A stretch of 33,913 nucleotides of DNA from an uncultured Clostridia bacterium (lineage in GTDB: Bacteria; Bacillota; Clostridia; CALYAR01), in the NCBI GenBank assembly GCA_944393585.1, contig CALYAR010000009.1, positions 1 to 33,913 of the forward strand, written 5' to 3'. The notes beneath the pieces are model-generated. The model made no database searches. It was not told the origin of the DNA and saw only the letters and a list, made by a program, of their open reading frames with translations. The first letter of the stretch is position 1. Every line of letters begins with the position of its first letter. The position numbers and the translations under genes are program-made. Shown here in pieces: positions 26,792 through 31,439 of this stretch.

Positions 26792-27682
26792 TTACATGAT
26801 ATCTGATTTATGACTGATTAAAGAAACAATCCGTTCCAAATCGTCGTTTCCATAATACTCAATTTCAATTTTTCCTTTTTTCTTTCCGCTTGTAATCTTC
26901 ACTTTCGTTGCCAAAGAAGTTTGCAGCCGCCCGCAGATGTCTTCAATGGCGAGTTCAGTTTGCGACGGTATGATTTTTGTATCTTGTTGTTTTTCTTCTT
27001 TGGAAGCGTTATATTTTTTTACAAGAGCCTCTGTCTGGCGAACGCTGAGGCCTTCGTCTACAATTTTCGTAGCCAGAAACAGACGGGTTTCTCGGTCAGA
27101 GATACCCAAAAGTGCCCGCGCATGTCCTTCGCTTAATTCTTTTTCGCGAACTAAAGCGAGAAGCTCTTCGTCCAAAGATAGAAGACGAAGTGAATTTGCA
27201 ACCGCCGAACGGCTTTTTCCCACACTTTCACTGATTTGTTCCTGCGTCATAGAAAATTGAACCATCAGATTGCGGTAACCCAAAGCTTCTTCAATGGGAT
27301 TTAAATCCTCCCGCTGCAGATTTTCAATCAATGCAATCTCTATGCTTTTGAGTTCTTCATATTCTTTGATAATGGCCGGAATCGTTTTCAAGCCTGCCAG
27401 CTTGGAGGCACGCCACCGGCGCTCGCCGGCTATGATCTGGTAAAAGCCATTTTTCTCTTGTTTGACAAGAATCGGCTGGATGACGCCATATTTTGAAATC
27501 GAATCGGCCAGCGCTTTTAGTTTTTCTTCGTCAAAATCTTTTCTGGGCTGTTTGGAATTTGGTTCTACTTCATTGATATTCAGCTCAGTCACCAGCTTGT
27601 CCGCATCGGCAGAAGCTGTCTGCGGCTGTTCCAATTCACTGATTAATGCGCCCAATCCGCGCCCCAGTCCCTTTTTTGGCAT
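26792..27682 (-). CDS. parB: Chromosome-partitioning protein ParB (Spo0J)
   Basis: 296 aa. The N-terminal KKGLGRGLGALI stimulates ParA ATPase in the family. The CTP-binding box is GERRWRASKLAGLKTIPAI (about 90-108). The helix-turn-helix is MTQEQISESVGKSRSAVANSLRLL (about 140-165), and a C-terminal dimerisation region ends the protein. ParB loads at parS as a CTP-dependent sliding clamp; two consensus parS sites lie about 0.9 kb upstream in this operon. AAGGAGAG precedes the ATG, 21 nt after parA. Confidence 0.97.
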   Translation of the reverse strand: MPKKGLGRGLGALISELEQPQTASADADKLVTELNINEVEPNSKQPRKDFDEEKLKALADSISKYGVIQPILVKQEKNGFYQIIAGERRWRASKLAGLKTIPAIIKEYEELKSIEIALIENLQREDLNPIEEALGYRNLMVQFSMTQEQISESVGKSRSAVANSLRLLSLDEELLALVREKELSEGHARALLGISDRETRLFLATKIVDEGLSVRQTEALVKKYNASKEEKQQDTKIIPSQTELAIEDICGRLQTSLATKVKITSGKKKGKIEIEYYGNDDLERIVSLISHKSDIM

Positions 27683-27703: not shown

Positions 27704-28498
27704 TTATTTTATCCTTTTTGTCTTTTTTTCAGCTTCTCCATTCATTTTTAAAAATTCATCGCACAATGCCAAATAGCTTTCTGCCCCTCGTGAGGTGATG
27801 TCATAATCAATAATCGATTGTCCAAAACTGGGAGCTTCTGAAAGACGGACATTTCTTGGAATTGCAGTCTGATACACCTTATCTTTGAAAAATTTTTTTA
27901 CCTCTTCAATCACCTGAATGGACAAATTGGTCCGCCCATCGTACATAGTGGGCAGAACCCCTTCGATCTCAATGCGCGGATTCAGCGATTTTTTTACCAT
28001 TCGGATGGTAGCTGTCAGTTGGCTGAGACCTTCCAAAGCGTAGTATTCACATTGAATGGGAATCAAGACACTGTTACAGGCAGTAAACGCATTCAGGGCC
28101 AATAAACCAAAAGAAGGAGGGCAATCCAACAGGATGAAGTCGTAGTCGTCAATGATGGGAACCAGGGACCGACGGAGCTGGAATTCCCGCTTGGCCTTAT
28201 CGACCAATTCAATTTCCGCCCCGGCAAGATCAATGTTGGACGGGACCACCCATAGATTCTGGTTTCGGGCCGGCAGCACGGCATCCGAAATAGGGACAGA
28301 ATCAACAAGTACATCATAAATGGTGTGCTCAATTGCATTTTTTTGAATTCCGATTCCGCTTGTCGCATTTCCCTGCGGATCCATGTCAAGAAGCAGTGTT
28401 TTCTTGTTTCGGCGGGCCAGGCAGGCGGCCAGATTTACCGATGTAGTAGTTTTTCCTACGCCCCCTTTTTGGTTGGCAACTGCTACTATTTTCCCCAA
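27704..28498 (-). CDS. parA: Chromosome-partitioning ATPase ParA (Soj)
   Basis: 264 aa from a TTG start. It begins MGKIVAVANQKGGVGKTTTS, with the deviant Walker A KGGVGKTT at 11-18. DMDPQGNATSG (Walker A') and FILLDCPPSFG (Walker B) follow. The TTG at 28498 fits both the family's usual beginning and AGGAAG with 9-nt spacing; an in-frame GTG at 28507 would overlap that ribosome site. ParA is a DNA-bound ATPase that moves or separates ParB-parS complexes and, as Soj, also regulates DnaA. Normally this pair lies left of dnaA; here it is right of gyrA. Confidence 0.96.
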   Translation of the reverse strand: MGKIVAVANQKGGVGKTTTSVNLAACLARRNKKTLLLDMDPQGNATSGIGIQKNAIEHTIYDVLVDSVPISDAVLPARNQNLWVVPSNIDLAGAEIELVDKAKREFQLRRSLVPIIDDYDFILLDCPPSFGLLALNAFTACNSVLIPIQCEYYALEGLSQLTATIRMVKKSLNPRIEIEGVLPTMYDGRTNLSIQVIEEVKKFFKDKVYQTAIPRNVRLSEAPSFGQSIIDYDITSRGAESYLALCDEFLKMNGEAEKKTKRIK

Positions 28499-28547
28499 AA
28501 AACTCACTTCCTATCACAAATATCAGTCAATCTTCAAAACACTTTTT

Positions 28548-28553
28548 ATTATA
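28548..28553 (-). promoter_or_regulatory. Possible -10 box for parA-parB
   Basis: TATAAT on the minus strand at 28553-28548, about 50 nt upstream of the parA start. At 17-bp spacing the -35 position reads TTCTTT, which is poor and lies in the T-tract next to the parS palindrome. ParB bound there could affect it. Confidence 0.4.
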
Positions 28554-28565
28554 GCATATATTTTC

Positions 28566-28598
28566 AAAAAAAAGAAGTGTTTCACGTGAAACACTTCT
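28566..28598 (-). terminator. Rho-independent terminator of the ispD operon, formed by a parS palindrome
   Basis: Bases 28573-28598 are a perfect 26-bp palindrome centred on parS, and on the minus strand it is followed directly by seven T (28572-28566). The RNA would form a stem of about 11 bp with a CACG tetraloop plus a U-tract, 32 nt after the ispD stop. Confidence 0.8.
28578..28593. promoter_or_regulatory. parS site 1 (ParB-binding)
   Basis: TGTTTCACGTGAAACA matches the conserved bacterial parS consensus TGTTNCACGTGAAACA at every position. It lies between parA and ispD. Confidence 0.96.
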
Positions 28599-28629
28599 AT
28601 AATAATTAATTTTGTCTCCAGTTTATGTT

Positions 28630-29337
28630 TTATAATGTTTCACGTGAAACACTCCCAAAGAGACCTGACTTTACAAGTGCTGAAGCAAAAATGACATCTT
28701 CCGGCGTTGTCAGCTTGAGATTCGAATAGCTGCCCTCAACAACTGTGATCGGCACCCCCATTGCCTCTACTAAAGAACAATCGTCTGTCACCGGAGCCGT
28801 GACAGTCTCATGTGCCCGCATAATTAAAGGATACTCAAAGACCTGAGGGGTCTGAATGACCCACAATTGATCCCGCACGGGAGTCGACATTACAACTTGA
28901 TCGCGGCTGCATATCTTTATCGTATCTTTCGTTCGCACTCCCAAAGTTGCAGCCTTTGTTTGGTTTGCTTTTCGGATGACGGCCGACAAATCTTCCTGGG
29001 ATACAAAGGGACGCGCTGCATCGTGAATTGCAGCCAGTTTGGTATGAGAGCCCGCCGCCTTCAGCCCGTTGTATACAGAACGCTGGCGTTGATCTCCTCC
29101 CGGAACAATCGAAGAGATTTTGGAAATCCCATAAAACCTTGTGATATCTGCACACTGTGCCCGTTCTTCTTTTCGGCTCACCAAAACAATTTCCTTTATT
29201 AAGGGGCAATTTTCAAAAGCAAGAAGCGTATGGGCCAAAACCGGTATGCCATTGAGATCCAAAAATATTTTGTTTTTGGTGCCTCCCATCCGTTTCCCCT
29301 CTCCCCCGGCAACAATTATGGCGGTGCAATCGATCAT
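28630..29337 (-). CDS. ispD: 2-C-methyl-D-erythritol 4-phosphate cytidylyltransferase IspD
   Basis: 235 aa. The CTP-binding start is IIVAGGEGKRMGGTKNKIFLDL (7-28); HDAARPFV (about 104-111) and TDD near residue 185 are further family marks. IspD makes CDP-methylerythritol in the non-mevalonate isoprenoid pathway. AAAGGAGAG, lying within the last codons of hslO, precedes the ATG, and only 2 nt separate it from the hslO stop. The gene's last codons contain a parS site, so its C-terminus (SVSRETL) is partly set by DNA-binding needs. Confidence 0.96.
   Translation of the reverse strand: MIDCTAIIVAGGEGKRMGGTKNKIFLDLNGIPVLAHTLLAFENCPLIKEIVLVSRKEERAQCADITRFYGISKISSIVPGGDQRQRSVYNGLKAAGSHTKLAAIHDAARPFVSQEDLSAVIRKANQTKAATLGVRTKDTIKICSRDQVVMSTPVRDQLWVIQTPQVFEYPLIMRAHETVTAPVTDDCSLVEAMGVPITVVEGSYSNLKLTTPEDVIFASALVKSGLFGSVSRETL
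28636..28651. promoter_or_regulatory. parS site 2, inside the 3' end of ispD
   Basis: A second TGTTTCACGTGAAACA, centred 58 bp from site 1. On the minus strand it encodes V-S-R-E-T, just before the final Leu and stop of IspD. Confidence 0.96.
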
Positions 29338-30999: not shown

Positions 31000-31339
31000 T
31001 TTAAGTTTCCCCCTGCGATTTTCCTTTTCCGCATTTGTTAGAATAATGGAAAAGAAGTACAACAATATAGTAATATAAAAAAATTTTTTTCGCAAGGGAA
31101 ATGTGAATGGAATATAAAGAAATAATCCATCTAATTTTTAAATCCATTGTAAAAAATGGATAAAGGAAGAGCTAACAAGAAATGGAACAATGCAATCTGT
31201 ATTTAAAATCAAAGAATAATATAATTCTCTGCTTTACTTCATTTCGGTGAAAAATTACGGTTATTGTCTGAAGGCGTCAGTCATCACAGATATAAAACTA
31301 CGCTGCCGCCGACAGGTCCCTATTTTGGCATAAATGAAA
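31000..31339. other. A/T-rich intergenic region upstream of the hslO operon
   Basis: It must contain the minus-strand promoter of the methyltransferase-hslO-ispD operon, but no good -35/-10 pair stands out. ATCCATT (31142-31148) and AATGGAT (31155-31161) form a 7-bp inverted repeat. A 63-codon plus-strand frame beginning at 31264 has no ribosome site and crosses a terminator, so it is not called. Confidence 0.45.
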
Positions 31340-31373
31340 CCCTCTATTGCAGGAAAATAACTGCAATAGAGGG
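31329..31373 (-). terminator. Terminator of the amidohydrolase operon
   Basis: CCCTCTATTGCAG (31340-31352) pairs perfectly with 31361-31373 (13 bp, 8-nt loop). On the minus strand it is followed by TTTCATTTA, a modest U-tract, 67 nt after the stop at 31440. Confidence 0.8.
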
Positions 31374-31439
31374 CAGCATGGTCTGTCTGCACAATATAGG
31401 ATCCGTTCAAATGCGGCAGACAGTTTATTTTGAACTGAA

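What the first reader, a model, noticed from the sequence alone, without database searches (positions are those of the whole stretch)
28566..28598. A parS site that doubles as a Rho-independent terminator
The consensus parS at 28578-28593 is extended to a perfect 26-bp palindrome (28573-28598) and followed on the minus strand by seven T, 32 nt after the ispD stop. The DNA form should bind ParB and the RNA form should stop transcription. ParB clamps spreading from here and transcription ending here share one element, so segregation and operon boundaries may be coupled.
Basis: partly seen in the sequence, partly recalled or inferred. Interest (0 to 1): 0.7.

Follow-up and report, generated by a model that had tools for sequence, protein, structure and literature searches.

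The report
Centromere site doubling as transcription terminator
A bacterial chromosome-segregation site sits inside what looks like a transcription stop signal just before the segregation genes, and the same fusion, built from different flanking letters, recurs in related bacteria.

Summary
A perfect consensus parS (28578-28593) lies in a perfect 26-bp palindrome (28573-28598) followed on the minus strand by T7, between ispD and parA-parB. Its minus-strand RNA scores as a strong intrinsic terminator (d 36.2; plus strand -16.2); 0 of 92,700 flank-swapped parS sites score as high.

In 312 surveyed sites not chosen by their flanks, 46 have perfect arms of 6 bp or more against 1.0 expected; 0 of 18 between divergent genes, 2 of 65 inside ORFs. 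Terminator scores above 10 fall on the coding strand only in 12 tandem sites, antisense only in 1.

Against a general rule: most sites are not terminator-like, T6 tails are no commoner than A6 tails (57 v 59 of 391 genomes), and no close relative was available.

Termination, ParB binding and coupling are untested. My paper searches showed no prior report. Closest precedent: Neisseria uptake sequences in terminators.

The parts
28578..28593 (.). consensus parS, TGTTTCACGTGAAACA (presumed ParB site)
   Evidence: exact match; ParB binding not tested
28573..28598 (-). 26-bp perfect palindrome; as minus-strand RNA an 11-bp stem with ACGU loop, the terminator hairpin
   Evidence: d-score 36.2 on the minus strand, -16.2 on the plus strand
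28566..28572 (-). U-tract (T7 on the minus strand) after the hairpin
28636..28651 (.). second exact parS, within the last codons of ispD (SVSRETL*); not terminator-like (d -33 and -58)
28548..28556 (-). candidate extended -10 element TGCTATAAT, perhaps the parAB promoter; its -35 position (28571-28576, TTCTTT, weak) falls in the terminator 3' arm and T-tract, 1 bp from the parS core
   Evidence: read; not listed by the promoter scan, which needs 9 of 12 matches; same kind of element downstream of parS in 33 of 82 unselected X-parA sites, upstream in 4. Activity inferred
28630..29337 (-). ispD, gene whose transcript the terminator would end
   Evidence: Pfam PF01128 2.5e-60
27704..28507 (-). 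parA (soj), downstream gene (start codon uncertain)
   Evidence: Pfam PF13614 2.2e-69
26792..27682 (-). parB (spo0J), presumed cognate centromere-binding protein
   Evidence: Pfam ParB_N and HTH_ParB; solved ParB and Spo0J relatives, best E 9.1e-59

Best explanation
One DNA element does two jobs. As duplex DNA, 28578-28593 is a parS centromere site loaded by the neighbouring ParB. As minus-strand RNA, the palindrome that contains it, with its U-tract, is an intrinsic terminator that ends the ispD transcript before the parAB promoter. The parS core supplies the loop and the inner 6 bp of the stem; selection for termination added the outer arms and the T-tract. It recurs because parS often lies in the short gap between an upstream gene and parA, where a terminator is useful: it keeps read-through out of the parS-parAB promoter region. 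Shown here: sequence, predicted fold and score, statistical excess, strand and context bias, and a few cases of arm turnover with pairing kept. Inferred: termination in vivo, ParB binding, and the benefit of fusing the two.
For: Window: d 36.2 on the coding strand only; rank 8 of 262 tandem and convergent sites, or 4 of 209 without picked loci; 0 of 92,700 flank-swapped sites as high. Unselected survey: arms >=6 in 46 of 312 sites v 1.04 expected (max 5 in 1000 swaps); default-returned replicate alone 18 of 93 v 0.47. By context: tandem 33/181, convergent 8/28, divergent 0/18, in ORF 2/65, edge 3/20 (divergent and ORF v tandem plus convergent: Fisher 0.049, 0.0007). d>10 in tandem sites: coding only 12, antisense only 1, both 7 (p 0.0034); without the window 11 v 1 (p 0.006). 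Intergenic ends with d>10: 37/494 v 7 with complemented flanks. Turnover with pairing kept: genus g30 taggaa/ttccta in two genomes v gaggaa/ttcctc in a third, before parA; family f5, three unrelated arm pairs before parA, one of them (L150) without a U-tract. Clear cases by eye: G371, G331, G395, G117, G040, G032.
Against: T6 tails 3-15 nt after parS occur in 57 of 391 genomes, A6 tails in 59. Short-arm tandem sites lean the other way by U-score: arms 0-1, coding only 15 v antisense only 29; arms 2-3, 4 v 14. At d>0 the strand bias is weak (15 v 6, p 0.078). 17 of 33 unselected long-armed tandem sites are not terminator-like on either strand (20 of 42 with picked loci). 69 of 82 unselected sites before parA have d<=10. 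G-U v A-C at the first arm break, a test for RNA pairing, is 21 v 13, p 0.23. No close relative, no transcript data. Gene calls come from a short script; the d-score was chosen after weaker results with a U-score alone.
Confidence: 0.72

Rival explanations
1. The extended palindromes arise by mutation: template switching in the parS palindrome copies one flank onto the other, with no selection for an RNA. T-tracts are chance in AT-rich DNA.
For: Long perfect arms with abrupt ends; 17 of 33 unselected long-armed tandem sites without terminator score on either strand; no overall T6 excess.
Against: Arms >=6 at 0 of 18 divergent sites v 41 of 209 tandem plus convergent (Fisher only 0.049); coding-strand bias of d>10 sites 12 v 1. 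Divergent and ORF sites may be constrained for other reasons.
Confidence: 0.12
2. The arms serve DNA: an extended ParB or accessory-protein footprint or a cruciform that helps loading, with RNA pairing a by-product.
For: Flanks AA...TT are preferred even where arms are short; long arms exist without U-tract (L154 and L160; L386); the G-U test does not favour RNA significantly.
Against: Arm sequences differ freely, which argues against base recognition; coding-strand bias and absence at divergent sites are not expected of a DNA-only role.
Confidence: 0.08
3. The terminator is tunable: ParB on parS changes read-through or the parA promoter, so centromere occupancy feeds back on parAB. This would add to the best explanation, not replace it.
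For: Candidate -35 position abuts parS in the window; an extended -10 lies downstream of parS in 33 of 82 unselected X-parA sites, upstream in 4. ParB represses promoters beside intergenic parS3 and parS4 in P. aeruginosa (PMC5521831, passages).
Against: No measurement of a ParB effect on termination seen or possible here; the fold that joins the two parS copies (-32.8 kcal/mol) ends at the same 3' arm, so it is not an antiterminator.
Confidence: 0.15
4. A chance terminator beside an ordinary parS, without any relation between them.
For: Terminators are common downstream of genes: 55 of 196 tandem gaps without parS have one.
Against: The hairpin is centred exactly on parS; flank swapping gives d>=36.1 in 0 of 92,700.
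Confidence: 0.05

Closest known systems
Chromosomal parS (Spo0J/ParB site) of the ParABS system
   Same: exact 16-bp consensus, two copies, beside parA and parB
   Different: core nested in a terminator hairpin, which the passages I read on parS do not describe
Intrinsic (Rho-independent) terminator
   Same: stem-loop plus U-tract after a stop codon, on the coding strand
   Different: loop and inner stem are fixed by a protein-binding DNA site
Neisserial DNA uptake sequences in terminators (PMC2397512, passages)
   Same: a DNA recognition motif also used as Rho-independent terminator
   Different: two DUS copies in inverted order build the stem; here one self-palindromic centromere site is the core and the arms are free
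parS at promoters: P. aeruginosa parS3/parS4 (PMC5521831, passages), M. bovis BCG gidB promoter (PMC2346475, passages)
   Same: parS placed where ParB could affect transcription
   Different: those concern initiation, not termination
RA3 plasmid stability module (PMC7414963, passages)
   Same: a tested Rho-independent terminator at the end of the partition genes, which are followed by parS
   Different: plasmid KorB system; the passages do not say that parS is part of the terminator

Membership tests
parS centromere site | 16-bp palindrome TGTTTCACGTGAAACA | tested here: met
   exact at 28578-28593 and 28636-28651
parS centromere site | chromosomal ParB encoded in the genome | tested here: met
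   ParB_N and HTH_ParB; solved ParB/Spo0J relatives
parS centromere site | bound by ParB in vivo and supports partition | not testable with these tools
   needs ChIP and a stability assay
Intrinsic terminator | stable hairpin | tested here: met
   -13.6 kcal/mol, z -4.8
Intrinsic terminator | U-tract directly after the stem on the transcribed strand | tested here: met
   T7 on the minus strand; d 36.2
Intrinsic terminator | ends transcripts in vivo or in vitro | not testable with these tools
   no RNA data
Recurrent parS-terminator fusion | parS-centred hairpins exceed chance, and terminator scores favour the coding strand, elsewhere | tested here: met
   arms >=6 46 of 312 v 1.04; d>10 tandem 12 v 1
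Recurrent parS-terminator fusion | conserved at this junction in close relatives | not testable with these tools
   only same-class genomes returned; none of the 80 ispD loci holds a parS within 1 mismatch in the DNA fetched, some of it cut short by contig ends
Recurrent parS-terminator fusion | general rule for parS | tested here: not met
   T6 57 v A6 59 of 391 genomes; 13 of 82 unselected parA-upstream sites d>10

The most novel reading that the evidence does not exclude
A centromere-terminator switch: ParB loaded on the parS-terminator changes RNA polymerase passage (as roadblock-assisted termination, or by occluding the promoter whose -35 position abuts parS), so the state of the partition complex sets parAB output and insulates the centromere from upstream transcription. 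Several bacterial lineages would then have evolved this circuit repeatedly by growing arms around parS.
Probability: 0.15. Interest if true: 0.85.

Novelty: new variant of a known kind. Interest (0 to 1): 0.6.

Why it matters
It links two maps usually kept apart, centromeres and transcript ends. If real, some transcription units end on the centromere itself in several lineages, which makes directly testable whether RNA polymerase must be kept off parS and whether ParB occupancy changes termination or parAB expression. It also warns that parS or ParB mutants in such species may have transcriptional effects that are not due to segregation.

Tried and rejected
Simple T-run tests: runs of T5 v A5 after parS were 26 v 26 and T6 v A6 genomes 57 v 59, so 'parS is generally followed by a U-tract' was dropped for the narrower claim about long-armed sites. 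A T-richness count did differ from its complement control in long-armed sites (26 v 10 ends at arms >=4). U-score alone gave weak strand bias: first two sets, 7 v 2 sites, p 0.08; later set, 10 v 4, p 0.18; all together 16 v 5, p 0.027. The combined stem-plus-U score was chosen after seeing these, so its p-values are not those of a plan made beforehand. Rfam: no family in the window at gathering scores. Antiterminator from pairing of the two parS copies: rejected, the long fold ends at the same 3' arm. G-U test: 21 v 13, p 0.23. ispD-anchored relatives: no parS in the DNA fetched. Shielding by terminators in general: coding-strand terminators in 50 of 110 tandem gaps with parS (25 gaps fused, 25 separate) v 55 of 196 without (p 0.0026), but parS gaps are longer (median 203.5 v 159 bp); by length the difference is clear at 120-200 bp (16/28 v 21/76), suggestive at 350-600 (13/20 v 7/18) and absent at 60-120 and 200-350 (picked loci included).

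Full report
OBSERVATION. The minus strand reads: last codons of ispD containing a perfect parS (28651-28636), stop at 28632-28630, 31 nt, the palindrome AGAAGTGTTTCACGTGAAACACTTCT (28598-28573), T7 (28572-28566), GAAAATATA, then TGCTATAAT (28556-28548) and the parA leader. Both parS copies are exact and 58 bp apart; with up to two mismatches no other was found in the 2.82-Mb assembly. Pfam names IspD, ParA and ParB on the same strand, and ParB matches solved ParB, Spo0J and Noc structures, best E 9.1e-59. The 98 other genomes are same-class only; that the class is Clostridia is my inference from the ispD hits.

IS THE TERMINATOR CONVINCING? The hairpin is -13.6 kcal/mol with z -4.8, and the consensus scan lists it (14 such sites found in that stretch, 9.4 expected). 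I scored it with the d'Aubenton formula (recalled: 18.16 nT + 96.59 Y - 116.87) using ViennaRNA energies: 36.2 on the minus (coding) strand, -16.2 on the plus strand; the second parS scores -33 and -58. Swapping left and right flanks among 310 intergenic parS sites gave arms >=5 in 1.7% and a score of 36.1 or more on either strand in 0 of 92,700; 10 of the 310 real sites reach it.

SURVEY. Exact parS occurs in 72 of 99 genomes, the window's own included. I collected flanks and gene context from 75 same-class loci (window; 130 non-redundant sites), 76 loci of the class of a Halalkalibacterium record (Bacilli; 89 sites) and a later set of 100 same-class loci (L354-L453; 158 sites), sites with one mismatch included and near-identical flanks merged. 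Of the later set, 40 loci were picked with flanks in view; without them 312 sites remain. In these, perfect arms of 6 bp or more beyond the 16-mer occur at 46 sites against 1.04 expected by flank swapping (largest of 1000: 5); first set 22 of 130 v 0.51, Bacilli 6 of 89 v 0.20, default-returned later loci 18 of 93 v 0.47. Context: tandem 33 of 181, convergent 8 of 28, divergent 0 of 18, inside ORFs 2 of 65, locus edge 3 of 20.

TERMINATOR SIGNAL. In the 312 sites, intergenic strand-ends with d>10 number 37 of 494, and 7 if both flanks are complemented, which keeps the pairing but turns T-tracts into A-tracts. Among 181 tandem sites d>10 falls on the coding strand only in 12, antisense only in 1, both in 7 (p 0.0034); at d>20, 11, 2 and 1 (p 0.0225); at d>0, 15, 6 and 8 (p 0.078). 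Leaving out the window, d>10 is 11 v 1 (p 0.006). With all 377 sites d>20 occurs at 29 of 620 ends v 0.4 by flank swapping (largest of 100: 2) and 7 by complementing. Tandem and convergent sites above 20 on the coding or, if convergent, the better strand number 22 of 262, in 18 families of the class plus 2 Bacilli genomes (family numbers; 6 of the 22 come from picked loci; 16 of 209 without them). The window ranks eighth of 262, fourth of 209.

NEGATIVE RESULTS. T6 after parS is no commoner than A6 over 391 genomes (57 v 59). Short-armed tandem sites lean to the antisense side by U-score. About half of the long-armed tandem sites, 17 of 33 unselected, have d<=0 on both strands, and only 13 of 82 unselected sites upstream of parA score d>10. 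In a class reached through a locus titled Deltaproteobacteria, arms >=6 occur at 5 of 16 sites that my script called intergenic and 0 of 15 ORF sites among the 30 default loci (one of the five, L482, resembles the coding sites, so its label is doubtful). Palindrome growth may thus be wider than the U-tract form.

TURNOVER. Junctions before parA keep pairing while letters change: in genus g30 the arm is taggaa/ttccta in two genomes and gaggaa/ttcctc in a third; in family f5 a 271-residue gene ends before arms acccccaaa (no U-tract), acagcaggaa or aataatacgaa; in f2, L373 keeps a long stem with a G-U pair on the coding strand, though without a T-tract. This is the pattern of a selected hairpin, but the sets are few and I chose which families to print.

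ARCHITECTURE. TGnTATAAT with at most one mismatch in the hexamer lies within 90 nt downstream of parS in 33 of 82 unselected gene-parS-parA sites and upstream in 4 (41 and 6 of 109 with picked loci). So upstream gene, parS (sometimes the terminator), extended -10, parA is a repeated layout. In the window the -35 position (28571-28576) lies in the terminator arm and T-tract, 1 bp from the parS core, so ParB there could occlude the promoter; inferred.

MECHANISM AND MEMBERSHIP. I hold it most likely (0.72) that the element is both a parS and a working terminator, grown around parS because the gap before parA needs a transcript end. Coupling through ParB is possible (0.15) and would come on top. 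By sequence it meets the defining features of parS and of an intrinsic terminator; binding and termination are untested.

PRIOR WORK. None of the listings I ran (titles and abstract starts only) showed parS-terminator fusion. The library lacks most subscription papers, and I did not see the 2007 parS survey of Livny and colleagues (reference seen) or the 2015 pneumococcal ParB-parS competence paper (reference seen). Passages read: PMC7022226 (no 'terminator'), PMC5521831 (only vector terminators; ParB represses beside parS3 and parS4), PMC2346475 (parS over a gidB -10), PMC2397512 (uptake sequences as terminators), PMC4409726 (no 'terminator'), PMC2267715 (no parS), PMC12779278 (terminators in general only), PMC7414963 (plasmid RA3, tested terminator after orf11, then parS), PMC10516426 and PMC4949633: nothing on fusion in the passages shown. 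Gene labels for survey neighbours (Noc, RsmG, GyrB, rubrerythrin) are my readings of clusters, not family searches; gene calls come from a short script.

Noticed in passing
loci; window 28578 and 28636: parS sites often come in close pairs: 71 of 173 successive spacings are 120 bp or less, bunched at 35-50 bp, with weak 10.5-bp phasing (R 0.25, p about 0.011, picked loci included).
   Followed up: partly
G066:C38:17849, G170:C8:44251, G162:C33:162924, G304:C1:1197400, G315:C1:10868, G068:C5:42290: By eye, a separate terminator-like hairpin ends at or within 2 nt of parS, its T-tract running towards or into the T's of the parS.
   Followed up: partly
gene-parS-parA junctions; window 28548-28556: An extended -10 element lies just downstream of parS in 33 of 82 unselected junctions, upstream in 4, suggesting parS-proximal parAB promoters as a common layout.
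   Followed up: partly
listing, e.g. G565:C63:5687, G587:C424:7422: In a class reached through a Deltaproteobacteria locus many listed parS sites lie, by eye, in one conserved reading frame with similar codons on both sides; gene not identified.
   Followed up: no
window 28566-28660, minus strand: The two parS copies can pair with each other as RNA (-32.8 kcal/mol, z -7.2), the 3' arm again ending at the U-tract.
   Followed up: partly
window 31339-31374, minus strand: Another terminator-like hairpin (14 pairs, 7 G-C).
   Followed up: no
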